Assembly: GCF_001570365.1 (NCBI RefSeq)
Contig: NZ_BBYK01000062.1
Location: 62,001-126,000 of the forward strand
Source of the DNA: Microtetraspora fusca
GTDB taxonomy: Bacteria; Actinomycetota; Actinomycetes; Streptosporangiales; Streptosporangiaceae
DNA: 64,000 bases
Reading direction: 5' to 3'
The first letter of the stretch is position 1. The number at the start of each line of letters is the position of its first letter. Under the pieces are notes generated by a model. The model was not told where the DNA came from, made no database searches, and was given only the letters and a program-made list of their open reading frames with translations. The translations under genes and the position numbers were made by a program. Below are positions 22,143 to 44,842 of the stretch, in pieces.

Positions 22143-22159
22143 CTACGTCATCCGTCGCG
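22143..22159 (-). promoter_or_regulatory. Shared 17-bp motif, copy 1 (upstream of reductase/meta-cleavage operon)
   Basis: Read on the minus strand, this is CGCGACGGATGACGTAG, matching CGCGACnnnTGACGTAG exactly. It lies 141 bp upstream of the reductase start. Three other exact matches occur in the window, all in intergenic DNA and all in the same orientation relative to the downstream gene. Confidence 0.6.
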
Positions 22160-22188
22160 GTTCCGGCGGTTTCTCCCCGCCGGGCGGG

Positions 22189-22869
22189 TCAGGCGGGCGG
22201 CGGGATGAGGCCCTCGCGGATGGCGAGCAGCGCCGCCTGGGTGCGCGAGGAGAGCTGGAGCTTGGTCAGCACGTTGCTGACGTGGGTCCGCGCGGTGCGC
22301 TCGCTGATCGCCAGCCGATCGGCGATGTCCCGGTTGGAGTTGCCCTGCGCGACCAGGGTGAGGATCTCCCGCTCCCGCGCGGTCAGCGCGTTGAGCCCGA
22401 CGTGCGGCGCGGCCATCCGCCGGGTGAGCTGGCGGGCCACGGCGGAGTCCAGGTGCACCTCGCCGTCGGCGGCGGCCCGGACGGCGGTGACCACCTCGTC
22501 CGGGTCGGCGTCCTTGAGCAGGTAGCCGGCCGCGCCGGCGGCGAGCGCGGCGTGCACCCGCTCCGCCTCGCCGAAGCTGGACAGCACGACGACCTTCACC
22601 TCGGGGTGCGCCCGGGTGATCGCCTCGGTCGCCTCCACGCCGCCCATCTTCGGCATCTGCAGGTCCATCAGCACCACGTCCGGCAGCGGCTCGCCGAGGG
22701 TCTGCCACTGCCGGAGCTGGGCGACCGCCTGCTGCCCGTCGGCCGCCTCCCCCACCACCTCCAGGGTGGGCACGGTCTCCACGTAGGCGAGCAGGCCCCG
22801 CCGTACGATGGCGTGGTCGTCGACCACCATGACACGGATGACCTCGGTCGCGGTCCTCTCGCCGGTCAT
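22189..22869 (-). CDS. Response regulator, NarL/LuxR type
   Basis: A 226-residue two-component regulator. The receiver domain has the acidic pocket VMVVDDHAIVRRG, the phosphorylatable aspartate in VVLMDLQMPKMGG, and KD in YLLKDADPDEV. The C-terminal LuxR-type helix-turn-helix is LTAREREILTLVAQGNSNRD then IADRLAISERTARTHVSNVL. The ATG at 22869 overlaps the histidine kinase stop in ATGA. Its location within the catabolic island, next to one of the four 17-bp motif copies, makes it the first candidate to bind that motif; this is inference. Confidence 0.94.
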   Translation of the reverse strand: MTGERTATEVIRVMVVDDHAIVRRGLLAYVETVPTLEVVGEAADGQQAVAQLRQWQTLGEPLPDVVLMDLQMPKMGGVEATEAITRAHPEVKVVVLSSFGEAERVHAALAAGAAGYLLKDADPDEVVTAVRAAADGEVHLDSAVARQLTRRMAAPHVGLNALTAREREILTLVAQGNSNRDIADRLAISERTARTHVSNVLTKLQLSSRTQAALLAIREGLIPPPA

Positions 22870-24416
22870 CGGTTCCTCCCCTCTCCGGTGCCCGCGCGGC
22901 GCGTGCCGGGGCCCGGAAGCGTCACGCCGACGGTCCAGCCGCCCTCGGCCCGGGGGCCCGCGGTGAGCAGGCCGCCCCACCGCTGTGCCCGTTCGCGCAT
23001 GGAGACCAGGCCGAGCGTGTCCCGGCCCGGCCCGCCTGTCGCGGCCTCGCCCGCCGCGCGTCCCTTGCCGCAGCCGTTGTCGGTCACCGCGACCGCGAGG
23101 CCGCCGCCGGCCGACCGGCGGAACCTGATCTCCACCGTGCCGGCGCGGGCGTGCTTGACCACGTTGTGCAGGGCCTCCTGGACGATGCGGTACACGTCCT
23201 CCTGAACGTCGAGGGCGAGGTCCAGGTCCGCGCCGGGGGGCGCCTGCACGTCCACGACCAGGCCGGTACGCGCCTCGACCCCGGCGGCGTGCGCGCGTAC
23301 GGCGTCGACGAGGCCGCGCTCGGCCAGGTCGAGCGGGCGCAGCTCGAACACCAGCCCGCGCAGGTCGGCCAGCGCGCTCTGCGAGAGCTCGGCCAGTTCC
23401 TCGGCGCCGCGACGCACCCGCGCCGGGTCCGCGTCCGGCCCGTCGAGCTGGGCGCGCAGCGCCTTGGCCTGCATCCGCATGGAGAAGAGCTGCTGCACCA
23501 CGGAGTCGTGCAGGTCCCGCGCCAGCCGGCGGCGCTCGTGCGATCGGGTCTGCGCCATCAGCGAGGCGATGTCGATGGCGACCGCGGCGTGGTCGGCCAT
23601 CGCCTCCAGGAAGGCGAGCGAGCCGGCCCCGGGGTCCTCCCCGGGCATGTAGTACGCGTTGATCACACCGACGGTGTGGCCGCGCGCCACCAGCGGCACG
23701 GCGGCGAAGCCGTCCCAGTCGGGGTAGCCCATGATCGCGTGCAGCGGGGCCCAGGACGGGTCGGCCATGATGACCCGTTTGCGGTGCCGGACCACCACCG
23801 GGGCGCCGCGTTCGAACGCGTCCATGAAGTGCATCCGGGCGCCCAGCCGGCGGCACGCGCTCAGTCGTTCGGTGAAGTCGTGGGCGTCGCCGAATCCGGC
23901 CATGCCGAGCACCCGCAGCTCCTCGCGCGGGTCGTCGAGGGCGAGGATCTGCGCCGCCGCGATGTTCCCGGTCATCACCACCTCGCGCGCCACCGCGTCG
24001 AGGGTGGCGCGCAGCGAGGCGGTGTCGGCCACGCTGGAGGCGGCCCGGACGATAGCGGTCAGCCGCTCCCGCTGCCTGAGCGCGTCGGTGACGTCGCTGA
24101 ACCAGACCGCGTGGCCGCCGCCGTCCAGCGGGGCGACGCGGTAGTCGAGGTCGCGCCGCCGCCCGTCCGGCGCGGACCAGGAGGCGCTTGGCCGCTCCCC
24201 GGAGGCCGGGTGGTCGTCGAGGGGGAACGGGGCCCGCCGGCCGAGCAGTTCGGCGGCGGCAAGCCCGAGGATGTGCGTGGCGGCGGGGTTGACCGAGGCG
24301 AACCGGCCGTCGCGGTCCAGTACGGCCAGGCCGTCGGCGGAAACCTCCAGCAGGACCCGCAGCGTGGACTCGTCCACCGAGCCCGGTTGCCGGGCAGCGC
24401 CGACAGGAGGTGCCAC
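22866..24416 (-). CDS. Cytosolic sensor histidine kinase (PAS-GAF-HisKA_3-HATPase)
   Basis: A 516-residue kinase without obvious membrane segments. A PAS domain at about 20-115 (LLEVSADGLAVLDRDGRFAS) is followed by a GAF domain at about 120-290 (GFAAVPLVARGHTVGVINAY). The HisKA_3 phosphoacceptor is ERRRLARDLHDSVVQQLFSM, and the ATP-binding domain has VQEALHNVVKHA and VTDNGCGKG. The signal is thus a cytoplasmic small molecule or redox state, possibly an aromatic compound, as in other PAS/GAF kinases of catabolic clusters. It starts at GTG 24416 after GGAG and is co-transcribed with the response regulator. Confidence 0.93.
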   Translation of the reverse strand: MAPPVGAARQPGSVDESTLRVLLEVSADGLAVLDRDGRFASVNPAATHILGLAAAELLGRRAPFPLDDHPASGERPSASWSAPDGRRRDLDYRVAPLDGGGHAVWFSDVTDALRQRERLTAIVRAASSVADTASLRATLDAVAREVVMTGNIAAAQILALDDPREELRVLGMAGFGDAHDFTERLSACRRLGARMHFMDAFERGAPVVVRHRKRVIMADPSWAPLHAIMGYPDWDGFAAVPLVARGHTVGVINAYYMPGEDPGAGSLAFLEAMADHAAVAIDIASLMAQTRSHERRRLARDLHDSVVQQLFSMRMQAKALRAQLDGPDADPARVRRGAEELAELSQSALADLRGLVFELRPLDLAERGLVDAVRAHAAGVEARTGLVVDVQAPPGADLDLALDVQEDVYRIVQEALHNVVKHARAGTVEIRFRRSAGGGLAVAVTDNGCGKGRAAGEAATGGPGRDTLGLVSMRERAQRWGGLLTAGPRAEGGWTVGVTLPGPGTRRAGTGEGRNR

Positions 24417-24498
24417 GTCGCTCCGTACCTCTGCCTCATGCCACTGTGACTTTCGGCAAAAATAGTACTACAAGGTAAAAATCCGGCAATACGCAACG

Positions 24499-24531
24499 TG
24501 GCGCCCGGACACAGAACGCGTCCGGGCGCCA
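24499..24531 (-). terminator. Intrinsic terminator after the MHS transporter gene
   Basis: A perfect 12-bp inverted repeat, TGGCGCCCGGAC and GTCCGGGCGCCA, with a 9-nt loop, 19 bp past the stop codon of the transporter gene. It separates that gene from the histidine kinase promoter region, which contains the palindrome TAGTACTA. Confidence 0.8.
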
Positions 24532-24549
24532 GGGGAGGTGCCGGTGGTC

Positions 24550-25869
24550 CTATCCGGCCGCCTCCGCCGCCGCGTCCACCGGCAGCTCCTCCTGGACGGC
24601 CGCCCCGCCGCGCAGCCCGAGGATGCCCACGAAGCTGACCAGCGAGAGACCGGCCACGTAGCAGGCGATCACGGTCGAGGAGTTGTAGGCGTCGAACAGC
24701 GCGGTCAGCACCAGCGGGGTGACCGCACCGCCGATCATGCCGCCCAGCTGGTACGCGATCGAGATGCCGCTGTAGCGGATCCGGACGTCGAAGATCTCGG
24801 TGAACAGGCCGCCCTGCGCACCGGCCATGATGCCCTGCACGATCGCCGCGCCGATGAAGGCGAGCAGCGCCAGCCCGGTGCTCTTGGTGTCGACCAGGGC
24901 GAACATCGGGATCGGCCACACCACGGCGGTCAGCGTGCCGATGACGTAGATCTTCTTCGAGCCGAACCGGTCGGAGAGGACGGCCGACACCACGATCGTG
25001 CCGATCCACACCAGGGTGGACAGCAGGATCAGGGTGAGCAGCGTGCTCCGGTCGAACCCGACGACCTTGGTGCCGTAGGTGAGCATGTAGACGATCACCG
25101 TGAAGCCGACCGCGGGCGGCGCGATGGAGGCCAGGCTGGCCATCAGCAGCTTGCGCGGCTCCCGCCGGAACAGCTCGGAGACCGGGGCCTTGCTGACGCT
25201 CTGGGCCTCCTTCATCCGCTCGAACTCCGGGGCGTCGTGCAACCTGCTGCGGACCAGGAAGCCGACCACCACCAGCAGCGCGCTGAGCAGGAACGGGATG
25301 CGCCAGCCGTACGACATGAAGGCGTCGTTGGACATGCCGGAGACGGCCAGGAACGCCAGGTTGGAGGTCAGCACGCCGACCGGGACGCCGAACTGGGCGA
25401 AGCTGCCGTAGACGGCGCGGCGGCGCGGGGAGGCGTGCTCGGTGGCGATCAGGATCGCGCCACCCCACTCGCCCCCGACACCGAAGCCCTGGACCAGGCG
25501 GAGGGTGACGAGCAGCAGCGGCGCCCCGACCCCGATGGCCGCGTAAGTGGGCAGCACACCGATGAGGAAGGTCGAGCCGCCGGTCAGCAGCAGGGTGAGG
25601 ACCAGCATCGACTTGCGGCCGATCCGGTCACCGAAGTGGCCGATGATCGCGGCGCCCAGCGGCCGGGCGATGAACCCGACGGCGAAGGTGGCGAGGGAGG
25701 CGAGGGTGCCCGCCACGGAGGAGAACTCCGGGAAGAACAGGCTTCCGAACACGAGCGCGGCGGCGGTGCCGAAGATGTAGTAGTCGTACCACTCGATGGA
25801 CGTGCCGACAAAGCTGGCCGCGAAGATGCCCTTTTTGGACGGGCCGGTGGAAGTTGGCGATGGGGCCAC
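24550..25869 (-). CDS. MFS transporter, metabolite:H+ symporter (MHS) family
   Basis: A 439-residue twelve-helix permease. The first helix segment IFAASFVGTSIEWYDYYIFG and the loop GHFGDRIGRKSMLV are signatures of the MHS subgroup, which includes shikimate, proline/betaine and dicarboxylate or aromatic acid carriers. RLVQGFGVGGEWGGA in helix 4 and a second loop DRFGSKKIYVIG support it. It starts at GTG 25869 after GAGGAG. Upstream lie a 9-bp inverted repeat and copy 2 of the shared motif, so it is regulated with the catabolic genes and probably brings in the aromatic acid substrate. Confidence 0.9.
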   Translation of the reverse strand: MAPSPTSTGPSKKGIFAASFVGTSIEWYDYYIFGTAAALVFGSLFFPEFSSVAGTLASLATFAVGFIARPLGAAIIGHFGDRIGRKSMLVLTLLLTGGSTFLIGVLPTYAAIGVGAPLLLVTLRLVQGFGVGGEWGGAILIATEHASPRRRAVYGSFAQFGVPVGVLTSNLAFLAVSGMSNDAFMSYGWRIPFLLSALLVVVGFLVRSRLHDAPEFERMKEAQSVSKAPVSELFRREPRKLLMASLASIAPPAVGFTVIVYMLTYGTKVVGFDRSTLLTLILLSTLVWIGTIVVSAVLSDRFGSKKIYVIGTLTAVVWPIPMFALVDTKSTGLALLAFIGAAIVQGIMAGAQGGLFTEIFDVRIRYSGISIAYQLGGMIGGAVTPLVLTALFDAYNSSTVIACYVAGLSLVSFVGILGLRGGAAVQEELPVDAAAEAAG

Positions 25870-25909
25870 GGATGGGTACTCCTCTGGACGCCGGATGGCA
25901 GATAAGGGC

Positions 25910-25942: not shown

Positions 25943-26004
25943 GGGCTCTACGGAATGTAAGTGAGCGGGACACGCCGAGTCGTGGGTCTTCTGTGGCGGC
26001 GCGC

Positions 26005-26021
26005 CTACGTCATGTGTCGCG
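26005..26021 (-). promoter_or_regulatory. Shared 17-bp motif, copy 2 (upstream of MHS transporter)
   Basis: Minus-strand sequence CGCGACACATGACGTAG, an exact match to CGCGACnnnTGACGTAG, 136 bp upstream of the transporter start codon in the gap after the decarboxylase gene. Confidence 0.6.
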
Positions 26022-26045: not shown

Positions 26046-27647
26046 TCACCCCAGCCTGCGGGTCTCCCCCAAGATCGGCAGTTCGACCAGGCGGGGGCCG
26101 CGGTCCGGCGCCACGGCGGCCAGCTCCGCCGCGAGCTCGGCGCCGTCCGCGATCCGCCGGGCGGGCAGGCCGTACCCCTCCGCGATCCGCACCGCGTCCA
26201 CGCCGGGCAGGTCGAGCCCGGGCGTGCCGGTGACGCCGAGCTGGTCCACGAACCCGCGCAGCGCACCGTACGTGCCGTTGCGCAGCACCACGAACGTGAT
26301 CGGCAGGTTCCACTGCGCCGCGGTCCACAGCCCGGCGACGCCGTACTGCACCGCACCGTCGCCGAGCACGGCGACCACCGGGCGGCCCGGGTCGGCCAGC
26401 GCCACGCCGACCGCCGCGGGCAGCCCGAACCCCAGTCCGCCGGCGGCGGGGAAGAACAGCCCGCGCGGCCCGGCGAGGTCGAGGTGCTCCCAGAACTGGC
26501 TGGTGTTCGAGGTGGACTCGTTGACCATGCGGACGCCGCGCGGCAGGGTCCGCGCCATCAGCGCGAACACCCCGCCCGCGCGGAACGGGGCGTCCCCCGG
26601 CTCACCCTCGGCGGGACGCTCGATCGGCGCGGGCGCCGGCCGGCCCGGCGTGCCGGGAAGCGCGTCGAGAAGCTGCGCGGCCACCGCGGCGACGTCGGCC
26701 ACCAGCGCGTCGCCGAAGGCGGCCCGCGCCGCCGACGCCGGGTCGGCGCTCACCGCGACCAGCTCGGCGCCCGCGGGCAGCCACGGCCCCGGCCGGTAGG
26801 CGTGGTAGCGGAACACCGGCGCGCCGAGGACCAGCACCAGGTCGTGGCCGGTCAGGTGCTCGGCCACCCCGGCGATGCTCGGCGGCAGCACGCCGCGCCA
26901 GAGCGGGTGCCGGGTCGGGAAGGGGCAGCGCGGCGGGGTCGGCGCGGTCCACACGGGCACGGCCAGCCGCTCGGCCAGCGCGACCACCGTCGCGAAGGCC
27001 CGCTCGTCGTCCACCTCGGGCCCCACCACCAGGGCCGGAGCCTGCGCCCGGGCCAGCCGGCCGGCCAGCTCGGCGACCAGCTCCGGGGTGGCGGCGCCGG
27101 CCGCGCGCACCCGCCGGGCGCCCAGGTGCGCCACCTCGTCCACGTCCACCTCGCGCGCCCAGTCATCCAGCGGCAGCGACACGAACACCGGACCGGCCGG
27201 AGGCAGTACGGCCAGGTGGAAGGCCTCCGACAGTGCGCGCGGCACGTCCTGTGCCCTGGCCGGCTCGAACGCCCACTTCACGTGCGGCTCGGGCACCCGG
27301 GTCATCGCCGGTTCGGCGAGCACCGAGCCCAGCCCGATCATGGCGCGAGCCTGCTGCCCCGCCGTCACCACCAGCGGCGTGTTCGAGGCGCGGGCGTTGG
27401 CCAGGTTGCCCATCGCGTTGCCGAGCCCGGCCGCCGAGTGCAGGTTGACCAGCGCCGGACGGCCGGTGGCCTGGGCGTACCCGTCGGCCATCGCCAGGAC
27501 CGCCCCCTCGTGCAGCCCGAGCACGTAGCGGAAGTCCGCCGGGAAGCCGTCCAGGAACGGCAGCTCGTTCGAGCCGGGGTTGCCGAACACGGTGGTCAGC
27601 CCCCAGGCGCGCAGCAGGTCGTACGTCGTGTCGCGAACGGTCGGCAT
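26046..27647 (-). CDS. mdlC: Benzoylformate decarboxylase
   Basis: A 533-residue thiamine diphosphate enzyme that converts benzoylformate-type acids to aromatic aldehydes. The match to Pseudomonas BFD is position-specific: Ser26 in FGNPGSNELP, Glu47 in LHEGAVL, His70 in VNLHSAAG, and a histidine at 282 in VFRYHAYRPG, the counterpart of BFD His281. The TPP motif is GDGAVQYGVAGLWTAAQWNL. The protein belongs to the mandelate pathway; hydroxylated or methoxylated analogues are possible substrates. It is divergent from an aldehyde dehydrogenase that would take the product, and a shared motif lies between them. Confidence 0.93.
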   Translation of the reverse strand: MPTVRDTTYDLLRAWGLTTVFGNPGSNELPFLDGFPADFRYVLGLHEGAVLAMADGYAQATGRPALVNLHSAAGLGNAMGNLANARASNTPLVVTAGQQARAMIGLGSVLAEPAMTRVPEPHVKWAFEPARAQDVPRALSEAFHLAVLPPAGPVFVSLPLDDWAREVDVDEVAHLGARRVRAAGAATPELVAELAGRLARAQAPALVVGPEVDDERAFATVVALAERLAVPVWTAPTPPRCPFPTRHPLWRGVLPPSIAGVAEHLTGHDLVLVLGAPVFRYHAYRPGPWLPAGAELVAVSADPASAARAAFGDALVADVAAVAAQLLDALPGTPGRPAPAPIERPAEGEPGDAPFRAGGVFALMARTLPRGVRMVNESTSNTSQFWEHLDLAGPRGLFFPAAGGLGFGLPAAVGVALADPGRPVVAVLGDGAVQYGVAGLWTAAQWNLPITFVVLRNGTYGALRGFVDQLGVTGTPGLDLPGVDAVRIAEGYGLPARRIADGAELAAELAAVAPDRGPRLVELPILGETRRLG

Positions 27648-27758
27648 GGTTCCTCCAAACCATCGACAGGCCGGTCCGGGCGGATCACCCCGGCGGCGAG
27701 TCCGCGCACACTAGCCGCCGCGTCGACGGCGGAACAACCGCCGGGGCGCGCGGCCCGG

Positions 27759-27775
27759 CTACGTCAGATGTCGCG
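27759..27775 (-). promoter_or_regulatory. Shared 17-bp motif, copy 3 (between mdlC and aldehyde dehydrogenase)
   Basis: Minus-strand sequence CGCGACATCTGACGTAG, an exact match to CGCGACnnnTGACGTAG. It lies 112 bp upstream of mdlC, pointing at it, and 136 bp upstream of the divergent aldehyde dehydrogenase in the opposite sense. Confidence 0.6.
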
Positions 27776-27910
27776 GTCGCAACTGCCGGATCACACCGCC
27801 GCGACCAGGTCCGATGCCCGCCGGAATTCGCCGCGCCGCGCTGTAGCGTGGCCCGACGCATGCGGGGACGCGATCCGCGGTCCCGCCCCGCGACGACTTC
27901 GAGGTAAGCC

Positions 27911-29374
27911 ATGACCCCACTGGACCAGCTGCCCGAGATCAGGACCCACCTCTACATCGACGGCGAGACACGGGAGGCCGGCGACGCGCTGCGGGTGATC
28001 GACCCGGCCGACGGCGCGTCGGTGGTCGGCTACGCCGCGGCCGCCGACGCCAAGCAGGCCGAGTCCGCGGTCGCCGCGGCTCACCGTGCCTTCCCCGCCT
28101 GGGCGGCCCTCGCACCGGATGAGCGCGCCGCGCTGCTGACCGCCGCACTGGCGCCGCTGGAGGCGGACCGCCCGGCCACGGCCGAGGTGCTGACCCGCGA
28201 GAACGGCAAGATCCGGATGGAGTCCGTCATCGACTCCATCGTGTTCGAGCACCGCTTCCGGCTCGCCGTCGACCTGGCCGGGGAGGTCGGGCGGGTGACC
28301 ACCCTGCCCGCTCCGCCGTACCGGACCGAGATCTCCTATCTGCCGCTCGGCGTCGTGACGATCATCGTGCCGTTCAACTGGCCGCTCGCGATCCTGGCCG
28401 CCTCGCTGCCGCAGGCACTGCTGGCCGGCAACACCGTCGTGGTGAAGCCGCCGCCCACCGCGCCACTGGCGACCGTGCGCAGCGTCGAGATGGTCGCGCG
28501 GGCGCTGCCGCCGGGCGTGCTCAACGTGGTCACCGGCGCGGACGCGGAGATCGGCGCGGCGCTGGTCCAGGACGACCGGGTGAAGAAGGTCTGCTTCACC
28601 GGCAGCTCGCTCGGCGGCCGGCGGATCATGTCGATGGCCGCGGAGTCGCTGACCCGGGTGGCACTGGAGCTGGGCGGCAACGACCCGGCGATCGTGCTGG
28701 CCGACGCCGACCTGGGCCCGGAGGCGATGGGGCGGCTGTTCGGCGGCGTCTTCGACTCCACCGGACAGATCTGCATGGCCACCAAGCGCCTGTACGTGCA
28801 CCGGTCCCGCTACGACGAGGTGGTGGAGGGCCTGTCGGGGCTGCTCGCCGCCACCCGGCTGGGCCACGGCCTGGCCGAGGGGGTCACCATGGGGCCGTTG
28901 CACAGCGCCCGGCAGCGGGACTACGTCCGGGAGCTGCTCGACCAGGCCCGCGCGTCCGGCGCCGAGGTGCGCGAGTACGGCGCGGCCGCCGACGGCCAGG
29001 ACATCTCCCGCGGCAACTTCCTGCGGCCGTCCCTGGTGCTCGACCCGGCCGACGACGCCCGCGTGGTGGTCGAGGAGCAGTTCGGCCCGACCCTGCCGAT
29101 CCTGCCGTTCGACGACGAGGACGACGCGGTGGCCCGGGCCAACGACACCTGGTCGGGGCTGTGCTCCTCGGTCTGGACGGCGGACCCCGAGCGGGCCGCC
29201 GCCATCGCGGCCCGGCTGCGCACCGGCTACACGTTCGTGAACACGCACGGCGCGGCGCACCTGGACGAGCGGGCGCCGTTCGGCGGGTTCGACCACAGCG
29301 GCATGGGCCGAGAGATGGGCGTCGAGGGCATCCGGGAGTTCATGGACACCCACTCGGTGGGCTTCCCCGCCTGA
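27911..29374 (+). CDS. Aldehyde dehydrogenase (probable benzaldehyde-type)
   Basis: A 487-residue NAD(P)-dependent aldehyde dehydrogenase. The cofactor-binding helix region is VPFNWPLAILAASLPQALLA and GSSLGGRRIM; the general base is the glutamate in ALELGGNDP; the nucleophile is the cysteine in STGQICMATKR. It is divergent from mdlC and shares its promoter region, so the natural role is oxidation of the aromatic aldehyde formed by the decarboxylase to the acid. The ATG at 27911 follows GAGGTAAGCC. A hairpin terminator follows within 42 bp. Confidence 0.92.
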   Translation: MTPLDQLPEIRTHLYIDGETREAGDALRVIDPADGASVVGYAAAADAKQAESAVAAAHRAFPAWAALAPDERAALLTAALAPLEADRPATAEVLTRENGKIRMESVIDSIVFEHRFRLAVDLAGEVGRVTTLPAPPYRTEISYLPLGVVTIIVPFNWPLAILAASLPQALLAGNTVVVKPPPTAPLATVRSVEMVARALPPGVLNVVTGADAEIGAALVQDDRVKKVCFTGSSLGGRRIMSMAAESLTRVALELGGNDPAIVLADADLGPEAMGRLFGGVFDSTGQICMATKRLYVHRSRYDEVVEGLSGLLAATRLGHGLAEGVTMGPLHSARQRDYVRELLDQARASGAEVREYGAAADGQDISRGNFLRPSLVLDPADDARVVVEEQFGPTLPILPFDDEDDAVARANDTWSGLCSSVWTADPERAAAIAARLRTGYTFVNTHGAAHLDERAPFGGFDHSGMGREMGVEGIREFMDTHSVGFPA

Positions 29375-30558: not shown

Positions 30559-30578
30559 TCGGACCTCCCGGTCGCTGG

Positions 30579-31685: not shown

Positions 31686-31741
31686 TGATGAGGTGGCCTC
31701 TCTCGTGATGGTCCGTCTGGCTCGTCCGGGCGCGCGTCGCG

Positions 31742-32575: not shown

Positions 32576-32618
32576 GGGTCTCCTCCATGCGTCCGTGGTG
32601 CGGGGGTGGGGTCCGGGG

Positions 32619-33908: not shown

Positions 33909-33936
33909 AGAAGTTCCTTCCGGGAATGCGGGTCGC

Positions 33937-35055: not shown

Positions 35056-35080
35056 CGGTTTCCCCGTTCTGTCGCGGCGC

Positions 35081-36052: not shown

Positions 36053-37511
36053 GGATCGACACCGCTTTCACCTGGGTGTACTCGAGCACGTGCTCCGCGC
36101 TCATGGTCCGGCCGAAGCCGCTGCGCTTGTAGCCGCCGAACGGAGCGCCGATCACTCCGCCGCCGAGCGCGGCGTTCACCGCGACCTGGCCGGCCTGCAG
36201 CCCGCGCGACATCCGTACCGCGCGGCCGACGTCGCGGGTCCACACCGAGGCGACCAGCCCGTACTCGGTGCCGTTGGCCACCTCGAGGGCCTCGCCCTCG
36301 CCGTCCACCGGGATCACCGACAGGACCGGCCCGAAAATCTCCTCCTGGGCGATCCGCATCCCCGGGTCCACCCGGTCGAACAGGGTGGGCTCGACGAAGA
36401 AGCCGCGCTCGAACAGCTCACCCTCGGGGACGCCGCCGCCGGTGACCAGCTCGGCGCCCTCCTCCCGGCCGATCCGCATGTAGTCGAGCACCCGGTCGTG
36501 CTGCTTGGCATTGATCAGCGGGCCCATCTGGACCTGCTGGTGCCACGGCCCGACCTTCACCTGGCGCATGTGCTCGGCCAGGCGGCGCACCACTTCGGCG
36601 TGGATGCTCCGGTCCACCACGACACGTGACCCGGCGGCGCAGATCTGGCCGGTGTTCAGCGTGATGCCGGCGGCGATCGCGGGGATCGCCGCGTCCAGGT
36701 CGGCGTCGTCCAGCAGGACCTGCGGCGACTTGCCGCCCAGCTCCAGGTGCAGCGGGATGAGGTTCTTCGCGCAGGCCGCCATGACCAGCGAGCCGGTCTG
36801 CGGCGAGCCGGTGAAGCTCATCCGGTTGATGCCCGGGTGGGCCGGGATGGCGGCGCCCGCCTCGTGGCCGTAGCCGGTCACCACGTTGATCACGCCCGCG
36901 GGGATGCCCGCCCGCTGCGCGAGCCGGGCCAGCGCCAGCGGGGTCAGCGGGGCGTCCTCGGCGGGCTTGATCACGATGGTGTTGCCGGCCGCGATGGCGG
37001 GGCCGACGTCGTTGACGAACATCGGACCGGGGGCGTTCCACGGGATGACGCTGCCCACCACGCCGTACGGCTCGCGCAGGGTCAGCCCGAGCACGTCCGG
37101 CGAGTACGTCGGCAGTGAGTGGCCGAGGACCTTGTCGGCCTGACCGGCGACGAAGGTGAGGATGCGGGCCATCGGCGGCGGGCCCCAGTGCGGGCGGCCC
37201 ACCTCCTTGGACTCGAGCTGGTCCAGCTCGGCCTCGTGCTGCTCGATGAGCCGGGCCCACCGCTGGATCAGGGCGCCGCGCGCCGTCGCGTTGGTGTCGC
37301 GCCAGGCGGGGAAGGCCGCGGCGGCCGCCCGCACCGCGGCGTCCACGTCGGCGGCGGTGCCGCGCGGCACCCGCCCGAGGACCTCGCCGGTGGCCGGGTT
37401 GATCACCTCGATCGTCTCGCCGCCGATCGCGGGGACCCACTCCCCGCCGATCAGGTGCACGTCGTCGACCTGCAGGGAGTCGACTCCCGAGCCGGGAAGG
37501 ACAGTCGTCAT
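36039..37511 (-). CDS. Aldehyde dehydrogenase
   Basis: A 490-residue NAD(P)-dependent aldehyde dehydrogenase of the betaine-aldehyde/hydroxymuconate-semialdehyde type. Visible are VIPWNAPGPMFVNDVGPAIAA, FTGSPQTGSLVM, the base in LHLELGGKSPQ and the nucleophile in NTGQICAAGSRVVV, then EEIFGPVLSVIP and APFGGYKRSGFGR. The ATG at 37511 follows GAGGAG. Placed 22 bp after an NDMA-dependent alcohol dehydrogenase, it should oxidise the aldehyde made by that enzyme. Confidence 0.92.
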   Translation of the reverse strand: MTTVLPGSGVDSLQVDDVHLIGGEWVPAIGGETIEVINPATGEVLGRVPRGTAADVDAAVRAAAAAFPAWRDTNATARGALIQRWARLIEQHEAELDQLESKEVGRPHWGPPPMARILTFVAGQADKVLGHSLPTYSPDVLGLTLREPYGVVGSVIPWNAPGPMFVNDVGPAIAAGNTIVIKPAEDAPLTPLALARLAQRAGIPAGVINVVTGYGHEAGAAIPAHPGINRMSFTGSPQTGSLVMAACAKNLIPLHLELGGKSPQVLLDDADLDAAIPAIAAGITLNTGQICAAGSRVVVDRSIHAEVVRRLAEHMRQVKVGPWHQQVQMGPLINAKQHDRVLDYMRIGREEGAELVTGGGVPEGELFERGFFVEPTLFDRVDPGMRIAQEEIFGPVLSVIPVDGEGEALEVANGTEYGLVASVWTRDVGRAVRMSRGLQAGQVAVNAALGGGVIGAPFGGYKRSGFGRTMSAEHVLEYTQVKAVSIRGTL

Positions 37512-37533
37512 CAGATGCTCCTCAGTGCTCGTG

Positions 37534-38643
37534 TCAGTGCTCGTGGACGATCACGCCGCGGATGTTCTTGCCGTCCAACATGTCCTGGTAGCCCTGGTTG
37601 ACCTCGTCCAGGCGGTACGTACGGGTGATCAGCTCGTCGAGCTTGAGGTCGCCCGAGCGGTACAGCTCCAGCAGGCGCGGGACGTCGTGGAGCGGGTTGC
37701 AGCCGCCGAAGATCGCGCCCTGCACCCGCCGCTGGTACCCGATGAGCATGCCGGGGTGGGCGTCGAGCGAGCCGTTGCCGACCGCGGTGACCGTCACCTG
37801 GCCGCTCTTGCCGACCACGTTCAGCGCGTGCTCGATGACCTCGTCGTGCAGCACGCCGACCGTGATGATCGCGTGGTCGGCGAGCTCGCCCCAGGTGGTC
37901 TCGACGACGAACTCGTGCGCCTCGCGGGCGTCGGCGAACGTGTGCGTGGCGCCGAACACCTTCGCCATCTCCCGCTTGAACGGCACCGGGTCCACCACGA
38001 CGACGTTCTTCGCCCCGGCGAAGCGCGCGCCCTGCACCGCGTTGCTGCCGACCCCGCCGGAGCCGTACACCACGACGGTGTCGCCCGCCCGGACCCCGGC
38101 GGCGTACACCGCCGAGCCCCAGCCGGTCGGCACGCCGCAGCCCACCAGCGCGCCGATCTCGAACGGGATGTCGTCCGGGATGCGGATGCAGGAGAACTCC
38201 GACACCACCGCGTACTCGGAGAAGGTGCCGAGGACGCAGAGCCCGCCGAGGTCCTCCCCGTCCAGGTGGAAGCGGAAGCTGTCGTCGGGGAACATGCCGG
38301 TGGAGGCGTTCTTGCCCGCGTCGCAGAGGTTCTGCCGTCCGGTGGAGCAGTAGCGGCAGGCGCCGCACGCCGGGATGAAGGAGCAGACGACGTGGTCGCC
38401 GACCGCCACCCGGGTCACGGACTCGCCGACGGCGTCCACGATGCCGGCGCCCTCGTGCCCGCCGACGACCGGGAACCGCATCGCGGCGTCGCCCTTCTGG
38501 ATGTGGTCGTCGGAGTGGCACAGCCCCGCGGCCATGAATTTGATGCGGACCTCATTCGCCCGCGGCTCGTCCAGCTCGACGTCGGTGATCTCCCACGGCC
38601 TGCCGGGTTCACGGCAGATCGCGGCGCGAGTGGTCATGCTCAT
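37534..38643 (-). CDS. NDMA-dependent alcohol dehydrogenase (mycofactocin-linked), copy 2
   Basis: A 369-residue paralogue of the enzyme at 33937-35055. It has AAGLCHSDDH, GGHEGAGIVDAVG, CSFIPACGACRYCSTGRQNLC, the Rossmann motif VVVYGSGGVGSNAVQGA and the C-terminal NIRGVIVHEH. It is expected to hold NAD and pass electrons to mycofactocin. The ATG at 38643 follows AGGAG; an ATG two codons on is possible. It is the first gene of the eight-gene operon. The N- and C-terminal parts differ from copy 1, so the two probably act on different alcohols. Confidence 0.92.
   Translation of the reverse strand: MSMTTRAAICREPGRPWEITDVELDEPRANEVRIKFMAAGLCHSDDHIQKGDAAMRFPVVGGHEGAGIVDAVGESVTRVAVGDHVVCSFIPACGACRYCSTGRQNLCDAGKNASTGMFPDDSFRFHLDGEDLGGLCVLGTFSEYAVVSEFSCIRIPDDIPFEIGALVGCGVPTGWGSAVYAAGVRAGDTVVVYGSGGVGSNAVQGARFAGAKNVVVVDPVPFKREMAKVFGATHTFADAREAHEFVVETTWGELADHAIITVGVLHDEVIEHALNVVGKSGQVTVTAVGNGSLDAHPGMLIGYQRRVQGAIFGGCNPLHDVPRLLELYRSGDLKLDELITRTYRLDEVNQGYQDMLDGKNIRGVIVHEH
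37871..38178. repeat. Near-identical DNA tract shared by the two NDMA-dependent dehydrogenase genes, copy B
   Basis: The partner of 34283-34590, at a constant offset of 3588 bp and in the same orientation. The direct repeat could support deletion of the genes between, or reflect gene conversion. Confidence 0.85.
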
Positions 38644-38793
38644 TGAGCCCCGTCTCCTGATTCTCGAATGGCCGCGACGGCGGCCGCGGTACGGGCGGAT
38701 TCAGCGGAAAGTCGCAGGTGAGGCCGTACGCGGTCGGCCGCGGTGACCTCACTATGCCGGGCCGGTGACCGCGTGATCGACGGCCCTTTCGCG

Positions 38794-39878
38794 TCACGGA
38801 AAGGAAATGTCGCCGGGATCCGTAAGGCCGGCGTCCGTACGGCGCGCGGCCGTGCCGGTGGTCGCGGCCGGGCCCGCGTCGAGCGGGAAGTTGAGCGGGA
38901 AGTGGCAGGCCACCTGGTGGCCGGGCGCGAGCTCGCGAAGCGCCGGCCGCTCCTCCGCGCACCTGGCCTGGGCGAGCGGGCACCGGGTGCGGAACCGGCA
39001 GCCGCTCGGCGGGTCGATCGGCGACGGCGGCTCCCCTTGCGGGGGCGTGGGCCGGCGGGCCTCGCCGGTGACCGGGTCCAGGCCCGGGATCGAGTCCAGC
39101 AGCGCCGCCGTGTACGGATGCATCGGCCGCCGGTACAGCTCCTCGGACGGCCCGATCTCGGCGAGCTGCCCGAGGTGCATCACCGCGACCCGGTCGCTGA
39201 TCTGTTTCACCAGCGCCAGGTCGTGCGAGATGAACAGGTACGACAGGCCCAGCTCCGACCGCAGCCGCTCGAACAGGTTCAGCACCTGCGCCTGGATCAG
39301 CACGTCCAGCGAGGCCACCGCCTCGTCGCAGACGATCAGCGCCGGGTTGAGCGCGATGGCCCGCGCGATGGCGACGCGCTGGCACTGCCCGCCGGACAGC
39401 TCGTACGGGCGGCGCCCGGCGAACACGCCGGGATCGAGCCCGACCAGGTCGAGCAGCTCCCGCACCCGTTCCCGGCGGCGGGCCGCCGAGCGCACGCCGT
39501 ACCCGAGCAGCGGCTCCTCGACCAGATCGGCGATCCGCCAGCGCGGGTTCAGCGAGCCGAACGGATCCTGGTAGACCATCTGCATGTCGCGGCGCGCCTC
39601 CACCAGCGCCTTGCGCCGCAGCCGCATCAGGTCCGTGCCGAGGAAGCGCACCTCGCCCGACTTGGGGCGCGGCGCCTGGATGATCGACCTGGCCAGGGTG
39701 GACTTGCCGGAACCGGTCTCCCCCACCACGCCGAGGGTTTCGCCCCGGCCCATCTGGAAGGACACGTCGGACACGGCGTGCACGACGGCGCCCTTCACCC
39801 CGCCGGGCCCGCGCACCGCGAACTCCTGCACGATGTCGCACACCTCGAGCAGCGGGGTGTCCCCCGCGCGCGTCTCGG

Positions 39879-39882
<4 letters not shown>
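38794..39882 (-). CDS. Oligopeptide-type ABC transporter ATP-binding protein (OppF/DppF)
   Basis: A 362-residue ATPase. Walker A is GETGSGKSTLA, the Q-loop lies in QMVYQDPFGSLNPRW, the signature is LSGGQCQRVAIARAI, Walker B is LIVCDEAVASLD, and the switch histidine is in LFISHDLALV. The C-terminal oligopeptide-transporter domain has cysteines in GCRFRTRCPLAQARC. Signature LSGGQ and SLNP point to the F-type partner. The ATG at 39882 overlaps the stop of the D-type ATPase. It is the last gene of a five-gene transporter operon. Confidence 0.93.
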
Positions 39883-40948
<1,066 letters not shown>

Positions 40949-40952
<4 letters not shown>

Positions 40953-41824
40953 CGGACACTCCACCGCGTACGCAGGCTCTCGCCGAGCAGGTTGAACGCG
41001 AGCACCGTGACGAACAGGATCAGGCTGGGCCAGAGCACGAGCATGGGGGTCGCGGACAGGCTCGCCTGCCCCTGGGAGATCATGTTCCCCCAGCTCGGCG
41101 CGGGCGCCGGGATGCCGAGACCGAGGAAGCTCAGCGCGCCCTCGATGACGATCACGACACCCATGCCGAGCATCCCGAACGTGGTGAGCTGCGGGGCGAT
41201 GTTCGGCGCGATGTGCCGGAGCAGCACCCGCCGGCCCTTCGTCCCGCAGAGCCGCGCGGCGGCCATGAACGGCTGCTCGCGCAGGCTGAGCGTGGCCGCC
41301 CTGGAGATCCGGGCGAACGCCGGGACGCTGAAGAATCCCAGCGCCAGGATCGTGTTGGTCAGGCTCGGCCCCAGGCTCTGCGCGACCGCGAGGGTCAGCA
41401 CCAGCGACGGGAAGGCGATCAGCACGTCCAGCAGGCGCATGATCACGGTGTCCGCCGCGCCGCCGACGTACCCGGACAGCGCGCCCAGCGTGCCGCCGAC
41501 CGCCAGGCCGAGCAGGTTCACCGTGACCGCGACGATCAGCGACGTCTGCCCTCCGTACAGAATGCGGGACAGGATGTCGTTGCCGTTGGGGTCGGTGCCG
41601 AGCAGGTGGCCGGGCGAGCCGGTGGGCAGGCCGGCCTCCAGGATGTTTCCGCCGGTCGGCGACGGCACGGGCAGGACCAGCGGAGCCAGGAAGCAGGCTC
41701 CGGCGACCAGCGCCAGCAGCGCCACCGGCACGGCCACGCCGAGCCCGCGGGTCCAGGTACGCGCCCGCGGAGCGTCCTCGTCCGCGTCGGCGACCGGCAC
41801 CGGCGGCGCTTCAACGACTGCCAT
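40949..41824 (-). CDS. ABC transporter permease, DppC/OppC-like
   Basis: A 291-residue permease. After an acidic N-terminal tail comes a first helix, then HLLGTDPNGNDILSRILYGGQTSL, the hallmark of DppC/OppC, further helices, the EAA loop AAARLCGTKGRRVLLRHIAPN, and SFLGLGIPAPAPSWGNM. The ATG at 41824 overlaps the DppB-like gene stop by 14 bp. Confidence 0.94.
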
Positions 41825-42824
41825 AGCGAATCCTCGGGTCGAGTACGGCGTAGAGCAGGTCGGTGAGCAGGTTCGCCAGCACCGCGACGACGGCGAACAC
41901 CACGACGCAGGCCTGGACGACGGCCATGTCGCGGGTGTTGATCGCCTGCAGCATGAGCTGGCCGAGCCCGGGGAGGGCGAAGATCTGCTCGATGATCACG
42001 GTGGCGCCGATCAGCGTGCTCAGGTTCAGCCCGACCACGGTGATCAGCCCGAAGGACGAGTTCCGGAAGGCGTGCCGCAGCAGCACCCGCCACGGACCGA
42101 CGCCCTTGGCCTGGGCGGTGACCACGTAGTCCTGCCCCTGCATCTGGTCGACCAGGTCGCCCCGGAGGAAGCGGGTGTAGAGGCAGAACATCGGGATGCC
42201 GATCGCCGCGGACGGCAGCACCAGCGAGTGCAGGTTGCCGCCGACGCTCTCCGACAGCGGGACGAACCCGATCGCCGGGAACACCGCGAACCGCACGGCG
42301 AACACCAGCACGAGCACCAGGGCCAGCACGTAGTTGGCCACCGACAGCCCGGTCACGCTGACGAACATGCTGAGCCGGTCGAAGAGCCGGTTCGGGCGGT
42401 AGGCGGCCAGCAGCGCGACCGGCACGGCGAGCACCAGCGAGACGACGAACGCCATGGCGACCAGCTCGCCGGTCACCGCCAGCCGCTCGCCCAGTTGCCC
42501 GGCCACCGACTGGCCGCTCACCAGGGAGCGGCCGAGGTCGCCGGTGACCGCGCCGCCGAGCCAGTCGAGGTAGCGCAGCGGCGCCGGCTTGTCCAGGCCG
42601 AGCTGCAGCTCCATCGCGCGGATCTGCTCGGGAGTGGCGTCGGCGCCGAGGAGCTGCTGGGCGGCGTTGCCGGGGATCAGGTTGAGCACCCAGAAGGTCA
42701 GGATGCTCACCCCGAGCGTGATCGGGATCGCCATGAGCAGCCGATTGCCGACCAGCCGCACGCTGGGCGAGGCGAACAGCCGCGCCCCGACGCCGCGGTG
42801 ACGCCCGGCGGTCACCGCCGTCAC
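41811..42824 (-). CDS. ABC transporter permease, DppB/OppB-like
   Basis: A 337-residue permease with the DppB pattern: helix LMAIPITLGVSILTFWVLNL, LQLGLDKPAPLRYLDWL then GDLGRSLVSG, and the EAA loop TAQAKGVGPWRVLLRHAFRN near the C-terminus, ending in DPRIRYGSR. The GTG start at 42824 overlaps the binding-protein stop in GTGA. It is homologous to the permease at 130-1077, but the two transporters are clearly distinct. Confidence 0.93.
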   Translation of the reverse strand: MTAVTAGRHRGVGARLFASPSVRLVGNRLLMAIPITLGVSILTFWVLNLIPGNAAQQLLGADATPEQIRAMELQLGLDKPAPLRYLDWLGGAVTGDLGRSLVSGQSVAGQLGERLAVTGELVAMAFVVSLVLAVPVALLAAYRPNRLFDRLSMFVSVTGLSVANYVLALVLVLVFAVRFAVFPAIGFVPLSESVGGNLHSLVLPSAAIGIPMFCLYTRFLRGDLVDQMQGQDYVVTAQAKGVGPWRVLLRHAFRNSSFGLITVVGLNLSTLIGATVIIEQIFALPGLGQLMLQAINTRDMAVVQACVVVFAVVAVLANLLTDLLYAVLDPRIRYGSR

Positions 42825-44440
42825 CGGCTTCTCCAGACCTCGTCCCACAGCACGCCAGAGTTGACGACCAGCGGCGGGATCCTGGTGGTCAGGCCGGGTC
42901 CGTGCACGCCCTTGGCGGTGAGGTTCGTCGGGGCGAAGGCCAGGCCGAACGGCGCGTACGCCTTGTCGCTGATGTACTGCCCGGCCTTGGTGTAGATCGC
43001 GTCGCGCTCGGCCGGGTCGACGGTGCCCTCGGCCTCGGCGAACATGTCGTCCAGCGCCTTGTCGGCCACCCCGCTGAACGGCGAGGTCGAGGCGAACCGG
43101 AAGGCGACGCCGACGCCGGCGGCCGGGTCCCAGGCTCCCGCGGTCTGCAGCATCGCGTGCCACTTGCCGGAGTTGAACTGCTGGACGAGGGTGGAGAGCT
43201 GGTAGTCCTTGATCGTGGTGGTGATGCCCGCCTCCTGCCACTGGGTCTGCAGCGCGATCATCACCTGCTTGGCGACGTAGTTGCCGAGCGTGCCCAGCTC
43301 GACCTTCAGCCCGCCCAGCTCCTGCACGAGCTGCTTGGCCCTGTCCAGGTCGTGCCCCCGGTAGCCGGGCACCGAGTCGTGGTGGAACAGGCCGCCGGGC
43401 GCGGTGAACGACTGGCTGACCGGGAAGCGGTCCTTGAACAGGCCCTTCGCGATGGCCTCGAAGTCGGTGGCGTAGTAGATCGCCTGGCGGGCCCGCTCGT
43501 CGTCGAACGGCGCCGCCTTCGAGTTGAGCTGCACCACGTACGGGGAGGTCGGCGGCTGCATGGTGACCGTGAGCCGGCCGCCGGACTGCGCCTGCTCCAT
43601 CAGCGGGACGGTGTTCATCCCCTCGTACGCGTGGGCCTGCCCGGCCAGCAGTGCCTGGTAGGCCGCCTGGTCGCCGCCGATCGACTTGAACGTCAGTTTG
43701 TCCAGGTACGGCAGGCCGTCCTTGAAGTACTGGGGGTTGCGCTCCAGCACCAGTTCGGAGCTGAGCTGGTTGGACACGACCGTGAACGGCCCCGCGCCGA
43801 CGGGGGTCACCCGGAACTTGTCGTCGCCGAGCTGCTTCAGCGCGGTCGGCGAGGCGATCCAGTTCACGTTCGAGATCGGGAACGCGTTGATCACGGAGGC
43901 GTACGGCCGGGTGAACCTGAGCACCACGGTGTCGCCGCCCTCGACGCCGATGCCGTCCTTGACCAGCGGCCACTTGGGCGTGCAGGTACACGTCGCGCCG
44001 AGGTTGCGCTTGAGGTTGAACACCACCGCCTCGGCGTCGAACGCGGTGCCGTCGGAGAACGTGATGCCCTGGCGAAGCTTGATCTTCACGGTCTTGCCGC
44101 CGTCGAGCAACTCGTAGCTCTCCGCCTGGTTGGGCGTGACCTTGGCGTCGCCGCCGTCGTCGTTCGCGGTGAGCAGGAACAACCCACCGTAGATGGCGCC
44201 CATCATGGCGATGTTGGCCCCGCCGGTGGTGTTGGTCGCGGGGTCGAGGCCGGTCGGCCAGCTTCCGGCGAACGCCGAGTCCTCCAGAACGGTGATCTCC
44301 CCGCCCTTCTGCGGGGTGGAGGCCGCCGACGTCTCGTCCGCCGGCGCGGCCCCGGTGGAAGCGCCCGGGTCGCCGCTGCACGCGGCGATCCCCAGGAACG
44401 CTGCCAGAAGGACAGCCATTCGCTGGGTCCTCGTTCTCAC
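42821..44440 (-). CDS. Extracellular solute-binding lipoprotein, family 5
   Basis: A 539-residue binding protein. The signal sequence ends in a lipobox (LGIAACSGD), followed by a Ser/Thr/Ala linker. Family 5 segments include GLDPATNTTGGANIAMMGAIY, IKLRQGITFSDGTAFDAEAV and VTPVGAGPFTVVS. The GTG at 44440 follows AGGAGG. Unusually it has two extra cysteines (CTCTPKW near residue 150), which may form a disulfide. The ligand is unknown; context suggests a peptide-like or aromatic conjugate. Confidence 0.93.
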   Translation of the reverse strand: MRTRTQRMAVLLAAFLGIAACSGDPGASTGAAPADETSAASTPQKGGEITVLEDSAFAGSWPTGLDPATNTTGGANIAMMGAIYGGLFLLTANDDGGDAKVTPNQAESYELLDGGKTVKIKLRQGITFSDGTAFDAEAVVFNLKRNLGATCTCTPKWPLVKDGIGVEGGDTVVLRFTRPYASVINAFPISNVNWIASPTALKQLGDDKFRVTPVGAGPFTVVSNQLSSELVLERNPQYFKDGLPYLDKLTFKSIGGDQAAYQALLAGQAHAYEGMNTVPLMEQAQSGGRLTVTMQPPTSPYVVQLNSKAAPFDDERARQAIYYATDFEAIAKGLFKDRFPVSQSFTAPGGLFHHDSVPGYRGHDLDRAKQLVQELGGLKVELGTLGNYVAKQVMIALQTQWQEAGITTTIKDYQLSTLVQQFNSGKWHAMLQTAGAWDPAAGVGVAFRFASTSPFSGVADKALDDMFAEAEGTVDPAERDAIYTKAGQYISDKAYAPFGLAFAPTNLTAKGVHGPGLTTRIPPLVVNSGVLWDEVWRSR

Positions 44441-44842
44441 TTGCGTCCTCCTGCTTCGGTGACGGCGACGGGCAGCCGGTGCGGTGCCGTGGAACTCTCC
44501 AGGGGATGCGCGGCGGTGCCTCTGACCTGCGCCTTCGGCCGTTCTGCGGCTGTGTGACCTGGCTCACTGCTGTGCGCTCAAGGGTGACCAGGCGCTGTCG
44601 GCCTGGCAAAGCGAGCTTTCGTGGGATGGAAGAAAAGCTTCGGACGCTCACCGAGACGCCCGGCGCCTCGCCGTCGCCGCCCGCCTCCGAGCAGCGGAAA
44701 CCGGCGGGCTCGCGACGAATGACGTAGCCGCGCCGCGACACTCCGCCGTACGAGATGCCGTCATTCGCGAGTTATCCCTGCTGGCGCGGCTGGTTAACGT
44801 CGCACCAGACCCGAACAACCGGATCTCCCAGGAGGCGACGAC
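44441..44842. promoter_or_regulatory. Divergent promoter region between the ABC transporter operon and fdhA
   Basis: A 402-bp gene-free region. It contains copy 4 of the shared motif (44711-44727) and, near 44605-44640, an imperfect inverted pair around AAGCTTT. No promoter hexamers were assigned with confidence. Confidence 0.45.
44711..44727 (+). promoter_or_regulatory. Shared 17-bp motif, copy 4 (upstream of fdhA)
   Basis: Plus-strand CGCGACGAATGACGTAG, an exact match to CGCGACnnnTGACGTAG, 116 bp before the fdhA start. It is inverted relative to copies 1-3, as is the gene it precedes. Confidence 0.6.

What the first reader, a model, noticed from the sequence alone, without database searches (positions are those of the whole stretch)
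22143..44727. A 17-bp motif repeated upstream of four units of the aromatic island
The sequence CGCGACnnnTGACGTAG occurs exactly four times, at 22143-22159, 26005-26021, 27759-27775 (all minus) and 44711-44727 (plus). All are intergenic. Each points toward the downstream gene and is 141, 136, 112 and 116 bp from its start codon: the reductase/ring-cleavage operon, the MHS transporter, mdlC and fdhA. Constant orientation and distance over 22 kb indicate one regulator with a directional site. The NarL-type response regulator at 22189-22869 is the nearest candidate; the IclR proteins are alternatives. This would tie transport, side-chain decarboxylation, ring attack and formaldehyde removal into one regulon.
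Basis: partly seen in the sequence, partly recalled or inferred. Interest (0 to 1): 0.85.

Follow-up and report, generated by a model that had tools for sequence, protein, structure and literature searches.

The report
Two-component regulon for methoxy-aromatic breakdown
Four copies of a short DNA sequence in this soil actinobacterium look like landing sites for one signal-responsive regulator, placed at fixed distances from the promoters of genes that import and break down lignin-type aromatic compounds.

Summary
In detail: CGCGACnnnTGACGTAG occurs four times in the window and nowhere else, exactly, in the 9.02-Mb genome. A relaxed motif (YRCGACNNNTGACGTAG) hits 19 of 25 family genomes with the kinase and 19 of 316 without; 31 of 40 hits in the former lie within 25 kb of a kinase gene.

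The "directional site" reading is not supported. The motif is a degenerate NarL-like 7-2-7 inverted repeat (TRCGWCA-N2-TGACGTA), used in either orientation by relatives. What is fixed is the distance from its centre to a TANNNT -10 element, about 54.5 or 76.5 bp: 47 of 58 TANNNTs around 58 sites (shuffles 1.9). In the host, 4 of 4 exact sites obey and 0 of 90 near-matches; copies in kinase-less genomes, 0 of 19.

The four sites fit five promoters: reductase/ring-cleavage genes, transporter-kinase-regulator (autoregulation), mdlC, divergent aldehyde dehydrogenase, fdhA. Binding, sign of control, inducer and expression are untested.

The parts
22143..22159 (-). Site 1 (16-bp core 22144-22159), upstream of the reductase-PIG-L-RraA-LigB-VanA genes
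22070..22075 (-). Predicted -10 TAGGGT, 76.5 bp from the centre of site 1
26005..26021 (-). Site 2, upstream of the transporter-kinase-regulator genes (autoregulation, inferred)
25954..25959 (-). Predicted -10 TACATT, 54.5 bp from the centre of site 2
25983..25998 (-). Possible weak second heptamer pair CGCCACA-GA-AGACCCA, centre 31.5 bp before the -10; 10 of 14 consensus positions
27759..27775 (-). Site 3, between divergent mdlC and aldehyde dehydrogenase; fits both promoters by the spacing rule
27708..27713 (-). Predicted mdlC -10 TAGTGT (54.5 bp)
27844..27849 (+). Predicted aldehyde dehydrogenase -10 TAGCGT (76.5 bp on the other side)
44711..44727 (+). Site 4, upstream of fdhA
44795..44800 (+). 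Predicted fdhA -10 TAACGT (76.5 bp)
44757..44772 (+). Stretch GCCGTCA-TT-CGCGAGT, centre 30.5 bp before the -10; its CCGTCAT part recurs at this place in L069 and several other promoters, but it scores only 6 of 14 as a heptamer pair, so a second site here is a guess
22189..22869 (-). NarL/FixJ-type response regulator (receiver + GerE), proposed binder of the four sites
22866..24416 (-). Partner histidine kinase (PAS, GAF, HisKA_3, HATPase)
24550..25869 (-). MFS transporter; best NCBIfam model metabolite/H+ symporter (below its cut-off); first gene after site 2
26046..27647 (-). Benzoylformate decarboxylase (mdlC), above the NCBIfam cut-off
27911..29374 (+). Aldehyde dehydrogenase
21007..22002 (-). 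VanB-like ferredoxin reductase (Fer2, NAD-binding), first gene after site 1
20099..20848 (-). PIG-L family; GalB-like role in the pathway is inferred
19383..20096 (-). 4-carboxy-4-hydroxy-2-oxoadipate aldolase (LigK/GalC type), above the NCBIfam cut-offs
18539..19393 (-). LigB-type extradiol ring-cleavage dioxygenase (no NCBIfam model reaches its cut-off)
17180..18208 (-). Rieske oxygenase with VanA_C domain (O-demethylase inferred; no NCBIfam model reaches its cut-off)
44843..46060 (+). Glutathione-independent formaldehyde dehydrogenase FdhA, above the NCBIfam cut-off

Best explanation
The four motifs are the sites of the NarL-type response regulator encoded at 22189-22869. A dimer binds two inverted heptamers separated by 2 bp; the TGACGTA half is strong and the CGCGACn half weak. 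When the PAS-GAF kinase (22866-24416) senses a methoxy-aromatic substrate or intermediate, the phosphorylated regulator activates five promoters from fixed positions. By the usual -10/start geometry its site centre lies near -66.5 (transporter-kinase-regulator, mdlC) or -88.5 (reductase genes, aldehyde dehydrogenase, fdhA), possibly helped at some promoters by a second weak dimer site near -43. Shown: motif, inverted repeat, spacing, co-occurrence with the kinase/regulator genes, and a site before the operon that holds them. Inferred: binding, activation rather than repression, phosphorylation, inducer and the second site.
For: The four exact sites are unique to this island. In 341 family genomes YRCGACNNNTGACGTAG has 59 hits, the reversed control 8. 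19 of 25 genomes with the kinase (E<=1e-60) have a hit, against 19 of 316 without it (Fisher p 7e-16); 31 of 40 hits in kinase-bearing genomes lie within 25 kb of a kinase gene. Over 58 non-redundant sites (77 before), 47 of 58 TANNNTs within 130 bp fall in two 4-bp windows; shuffles give mean 1.9, max 7 in 1000. Stricter redundancy cuts keep it (37/47, 31/40, 18/26, 11/15); seven other hexamers give between 1 of 31 and 4 of 17. On sites first seen after the rule was stated: 5 of 9 far from the kinase in kinase-bearing genomes, 5 of 6 new ones near it, and 8 of 12 new ones in named relatives obey; 0 of 19 in kinase-less genomes do. In the own genome 4 of 4 exact sites (the ones in which the rule was noticed) and 0 of 90 near-matches obey. 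In 42 relative sites reached through the kinase and chosen only by TGACGTA plus spacing, the opposite half reads T/C, A/G, C, G, A/T, C, A/G, a 7-2-7 inverted repeat. TGACGTA with the -10 on its own side has 64 hits, redundant ones counted, against mean 0.34 and max 9 for 200 permuted heptamers. RTARTHVS of the recognition helix is kept in 45 of 46 rows (43 distinct sequences) down to 57% identity. 16 of 16 typed genes behind rule-obeying sites in other genomes belong to catabolic, C1-transfer or transport families.
Against: No binding, expression or transcription-start data. 12 of 58 non-redundant sites have no TANNNT at either distance; 5 of these (L061, L067, L072, L078, L080) lie in loci of the kinase group often linked to the solute-binding protein operon. 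6 of 25 kinase-bearing family genomes have no hit of the relaxed motif. The spacing was first seen by eye in the window and relatives. -88.5 is not among the positions shown to work for NarL in the passages read. The second site is doubtful: a log-odds scan put only 8 of 64 promoters above the shuffles' 95th percentile, 4 of them at 30.5-31.5 bp; a simpler consensus count does peak there (7.4 against mean 5.6, sd 0.5), but of the five window promoters only site 2 scores well (10 of 14; the others 6, 7, 6, 7). Gene neighbourhoods come from a home-made gene picker that misplaced some frames.
Confidence: 0.88

Rival explanations
1. The site is bound by another regulator of the island, such as the IclR at 10519-11352, and the kinase/regulator pair is only a co-inherited neighbour.
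For: An IclR gene lies in the island, and IclR homologues at 52-54% identity sit in loci of one kinase group (L062, L063, L065, L067, L078).
Against: No IclR homologue at 45% or more in L050-L060, 11 loci that keep a motif with at most one mismatch, the kinase and the regulator. The 7-2-7 layout and the conserved recognition helix point to the NarL-type protein. The transporter-kinase-regulator genes are themselves behind a site.
Confidence: 0.05
2. The regulator represses from these sites rather than activates, and is released by the kinase signal.
For: No expression data separate the two; binding and spacing alone do not give the sign.
Against: Sites lie well upstream of the -35 at two distances 22 bp apart; NarL activates from comparable places (PMC7419079, passages: -77.5 and -44.5 together, or -67.5 alone). 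The window's -35 hexamers look weak by eye. A repressor would hardly need a fixed spacing so far upstream.
Confidence: 0.07
3. The motif is part of a promoter class read by an alternative sigma factor, not a regulator site.
For: Fixed distance to a -10-like hexamer.
Against: The site is used in both orientations and at two distances, lies 54 or 76 bp from the -10, and tracks the kinase gene.
Confidence: 0.02
4. Chance or shared descent of duplicated promoters.
For: The relatives are partly orthologous promoters.
Against: Zero expected in the window; four promoters of unrelated genes in one genome obey the spacing while 0 of 90 near-matches do; the effect survives strict redundancy cuts.
Confidence: 0.01

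Closest known systems
NarX/NarL of Escherichia coli, ogt and yeaR promoters (PMC7419079, passages only)
   Same: Response regulator that binds two 7-bp elements as an inverted repeat with 2-bp spacer; activation from upstream centres (-77.5 together with -44.5; -67.5 in a built promoter).
   Different: Different heptamer (here TACGWCA; NarL's TACYYMT is recalled), PAS-GAF kinase, aromatic catabolism instead of nitrate; -88.5 not reported in the passages read.
Syringate catabolism of Pseudomonas sp. NGC7 (PMC12314914, abstract and outline only)
   Same: Same kind of pathway: VanAB O-demethylase, GalB/GalC steps, FdhA for formaldehyde.
   Different: There it is run by a GntR-type repressor (VanR2) and a LysR-type activator (GalR); here, by this reading, by one two-component system.
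Biphenyl two-component system of Rhodococcus sp. M5 (seen only as a reference title in PMC6099782; details recalled)
   Same: Actinobacterial kinase plus response regulator near genes of ring degradation.
   Different: Other pathway; proteins and sites not compared here.
VraR, NarL and DevR structures
   Same: Nearest solved full-length relatives by sequence (VraR 9e-48, NarL 7e-37, DevR 5e-33).
   Different: Different functions; their DNA sites were not compared.

Membership tests
NarL/FixJ (LuxR-type) response regulators | Receiver domain plus GerE helix-turn-helix | tested here: met
   PF00072 1.4e-25, PF00196 2.2e-20; VraR/NarL/DevR best solved relatives
NarL/FixJ (LuxR-type) response regulators | Partner histidine kinase of the HisKA_3 class | tested here: met
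   PF07730 4.8e-18 with HATPase_c; adjacent, overlapping by 4 bp (coordinates)
7-2-7 sites of NarL type | Two 7-bp elements, inverted, 2-bp spacer | tested here: met
   42 relative sites chosen on one half only show the other half as a degenerate inverted copy; perfect palindrome TACGTCA-TA-TGACGTA in L076, one base short in L075
NarL orthologue (nitrate regulator) | TACYYMT heptamer (recalled) and nitrate gene targets | tested here: not met
   Heptamer here TACGWCA; typed targets are aromatic catabolism, C1 and transport genes
NarL/FixJ (LuxR-type) response regulators | Phosphorylation-dependent DNA binding | not testable with these tools
   Needs protein
Tandem NarL sites as at ogt | Second 7-2-7 site abutting the -35 | tested here: inconclusive
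   Consensus count peaks at 30.5 bp before the -10, log-odds scan mostly negative
VanAB/meta-cleavage methoxy-aromatic pathway | Rieske VanA-type oxygenase with reductase, extradiol dioxygenase, CHA aldolase, formaldehyde dehydrogenase | tested here: met
   VanA_C, Fer2/NAD reductase, LigB by Pfam; ligK_PcmE and fdhA_non_GSH above NCBIfam cut-offs; substrate of the oxygenases not known
VanAB/meta-cleavage methoxy-aromatic pathway | Growth on syringate, vanillate or related acids | not testable with these tools
   Needs culture

The most novel reading that the evidence does not exclude
A previously undescribed two-component system, spread over several actinobacterial families, controls methoxy-aromatic and meta-cleavage catabolism through one strict promoter grammar. 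A 7-2-7 site, free in orientation, is set either about 54.5 or about 76.5 bp (two helical turns apart) from the -10, at some promoters perhaps over a weak second dimer site. The grammar is strict enough to read the regulon, including distant O-demethylation and C1-carrier genes, straight from genome sequence.
Probability: 0.7. Interest if true: 0.68.

Novelty: new member of a known kind. Interest (0 to 1): 0.6.

Why it matters
Bacterial syringate catabolism is called largely unknown in a 2025 abstract (PMC12314914), and my searches listed no regulator of this kind for actinobacteria. This gives a candidate regulator, its binding code and a spacing rule that separates likely sites from chance copies (0 of 19 background; 0 of 90 near-matches). 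It is directly testable in harmless soil strains and suggests a set of aromatic-inducible promoters.

Tried and rejected
A directional site was considered and dropped: relatives use both orientations. A constant distance to the start codon was dropped for distance to the -10. A first guess that all four window promoters have their -10 at offset 46 was wrong: sites 1 and 4 have it at offset 68. The SBP/ABC operon (29554-44440) and the second VanA/reductase/IclR block (10519-13883) have no site that passes the spacing rule in the window; the only further candidate of that scan, near 59544, scores 7.2, below the lowest training site (11.4), and is left out. The genus gave no test: its other 3 species have no motif and no kinase. 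A phylum-wide draw of 396 genomes found the kinase only in G000. A test of these operons without the kinase was not possible: the VanA orthologue (E<=1e-100) is in 4 of 341 family genomes and all 4 carry the kinase. Literature searches listed nothing on this regulator or site; they cover only the held open-licence library, and only four papers were opened (PMC7419079 and PMC6099782 passages; PMC12314914 and PMC9867520 abstract and outline).
Full report
Observation. CGCGACnnnTGACGTAG is present exactly four times at the stated places (0 in 100 shuffles), 141, 136, 112 and 116 bp before the start codons. In the whole host genome (9,023,190 bases in 108 contigs) there is no fifth exact copy; 4 copies have one mismatch and 86 two, against 62 for the reversed pattern at the same tolerance. 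So the exact motif belongs to this island.

Genes. Pfam and NCBIfam give: site 1, a VanB-like reductase followed by a PIG-L protein (GalB-like, inferred), a LigK/GalC-type aldolase, a LigB-type dioxygenase and a VanA-type oxygenase; site 2, an MFS transporter followed by the PAS-GAF-HisKA_3 kinase and the NarL-type regulator; site 3, a benzoylformate decarboxylase on one side and an aldehyde dehydrogenase on the other; site 4, FdhA. This is a plausible route for a methoxylated mandelate or benzoate through O-demethylation and meta-cleavage, with FdhA removing formaldehyde. The substrate is inferred, not shown. Site 2 puts the kinase and regulator genes behind a site of their own.

Link to the two-component system. 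Kinase relatives were taken from 341 genomes of the same family (25 at E<=1e-60) and from named genomes (34 loci; two, L081 and L082, are not close relatives). The motif in the form YRCGACNNNTGACGTAG was then sought in the same 341 genomes without regard to the kinase: 59 hits in 38 genomes, against 8 hits in 6 genomes for the reversed control (counted from the table). 19 of 25 kinase-bearing genomes have a hit, 19 of 316 others; 31 of 40 hits in the former lie within 25 kb of a kinase gene. Of 23 genomes of named kinase-bearing relatives, 15 have a hit (24 hits; control 1); by their match places two of the 23 repeat genomes of the first set (G329, G338), and the rest are by name mostly of other families. 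Gene neighbourhoods repeat parts of the island.

Shape of the site. In distant relatives the site becomes TACGACAAGTGACGTAG and, in L076, a perfect palindrome TACGTCA-TA-TGACGTA. Choosing sites only by TGACGTA plus the spaced -10 gave 64 non-redundant sites: 5 promoter fits in the window, 42 in relatives reached through the kinase, 17 in loci fetched with the full pattern, whose other half is therefore not free. In the 42, the opposite half reads T/C, A/G, C, G, A/T, C, A/G: a degenerate inverted copy with a 2-bp spacer. Over all 64 sites the strong half is nearer the promoter in 33 and farther in 31. This is the 7-2-7 layout described for NarL (PMC7419079, passages). In the window the left half is weak, which makes the site look directional.

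Spacing rule. For 58 non-redundant sites (up to one mismatch; 77 before redundancy removal; one palindrome counted in both directions), TANNNT within 130 bp on either side was listed. 47 of 58 occurrences start 52.5-55.5 or 74.5-77.5 bp from the site's centre; first-order shuffles give 1.9 (sd 1.4, max 7 in 1000). Without the window and its near-twin genome it is 42 of 53. By site: 22 right only, 23 left only, 1 both, 12 neither. Stricter redundancy cuts give 37/47, 31/40, 18/26 and 11/15; seven other hexamers give 7/53, 4/49, 4/38, 1/31, 4/17, 20/356 and 4/92. The rule was first noticed by eye in the window and relatives, so new sequence was fetched: 0 of 19 copies in kinase-less genomes obey (one, L145, has only 40 bp on its left), 5 of 9 copies far from the kinase in kinase-bearing genomes do, 6 of 8 near ones do (5 of the 6 not seen before), and 15 of 24 in the named genomes do (8 of the 12 not seen before; L110/L112 and L121/L122 look like related promoters). 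In the host genome all 94 copies with up to two mismatches were read: 4 of 4 exact sites obey, 0 of 90 others.

Targets elsewhere. Of 17 genes picked behind rule-obeying sites in loci L103-L159, 16 were sent to Pfam (L119:816-1265 was not): MFS transporter six times (partial proteins; two just below Pfam's cut-off), GCV_T three times (the family of tetrahydrofolate-dependent O-demethylases, recalled), aldehyde dehydrogenase twice, and LigA, PIG-L, ferredoxin reductase, Amidohydro_2 and a pterin-binding enzyme once each. In genomes of the kinase group often beside the solute-binding protein operon (53-58% identity), the sites next to the kinase mostly do not obey the rule (L061, L067, L072, L078 do not) while sites elsewhere in several of those genomes do (L109, L110, L112, L114, L119, L121, L122, L124). 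Whether a second kinase stands near those was not checked.

Window promoters. Centre-to--10 distances are 76.5 (reductase, TAGGGT), 54.5 (transporter, TACATT), 54.5 (mdlC, TAGTGT), 76.5 (aldehyde dehydrogenase, TAGCGT, other side of the same site) and 76.5 (fdhA, TAACGT). With the start 12 bp after the first -10 base, centres lie near -66.5 and -88.5. In the NarL paper's passages, the ogt promoter needs -77.5 and -44.5 together, and a built promoter works from -67.5 while most other placements were poor. A second, weaker heptamer pair near -43 is uncertain: a consensus count peaks at 30.5 bp before the -10 over 64 promoters (7.4 against 5.6, sd 0.5), but a log-odds scan lifts only 8 of 64 above the shuffles' 95th percentile, 4 of them there, and in the window only site 2 scores well (10 of 14).

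Binder. Regulators were found in 46 of 50 loci searched; 45 with a good score were aligned with the window's (46 rows, 43 distinct). RTARTHVS in the recognition helix is kept in 45 of 46 rows (L077 differs) although overall identity falls to 57%. Mean identity to the window's regulator is 0.69 in the receiver, 0.79 in the HTH and 0.84 around the recognition helix. The nearest solved relatives are VraR, NarL and DevR.

Known or new. A NarL-family regulator with a 7-2-7 site is a known kind. The particular system, site and regulon were not found in print in the searches listed. The comparable syringate pathway of Pseudomonas sp. NGC7 is run by GntR- and LysR-type regulators (PMC12314914, abstract).

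Noticed in passing
window 6146-9584: Mycofactocin genes: creatininase-family protein, pre-mycofactocin synthase MftD and mycofactocin radical SAM maturase, near an island with several zinc alcohol dehydrogenases.
   Followed up: partly
window 10519-13883: A second VanA-type oxygenase, reductase and an IclR regulator, without a site that passes the spacing rule.
   Followed up: partly
window 29554-44440: SBP5/ABC transport, alcohol and aldehyde dehydrogenases, luciferase-like monooxygenase, amidohydrolase and ligase genes; in Pseudonocardia, Amycolatopsis, Prauserella and Saccharopolyspora loci parts of this set sit near a kinase group of 53-58% identity whose match begins only at residue 109-138, as if lacking the PAS domain.
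   Followed up: partly
   Followed up: no
L109, L110, L121, L156: Rule-obeying sites before GCV_T and pterin-binding enzymes, suggesting that the same system also controls tetrahydrofolate-dependent O-demethylation in relatives.
   Followed up: partly
window 22070-22143 and L050-L054, L089: A partly conserved ATCGGTC ... TGACATCGGnCCGAT stretch between site and -10 of the reductase promoter, perhaps another regulator's site (by eye).
   Followed up: no
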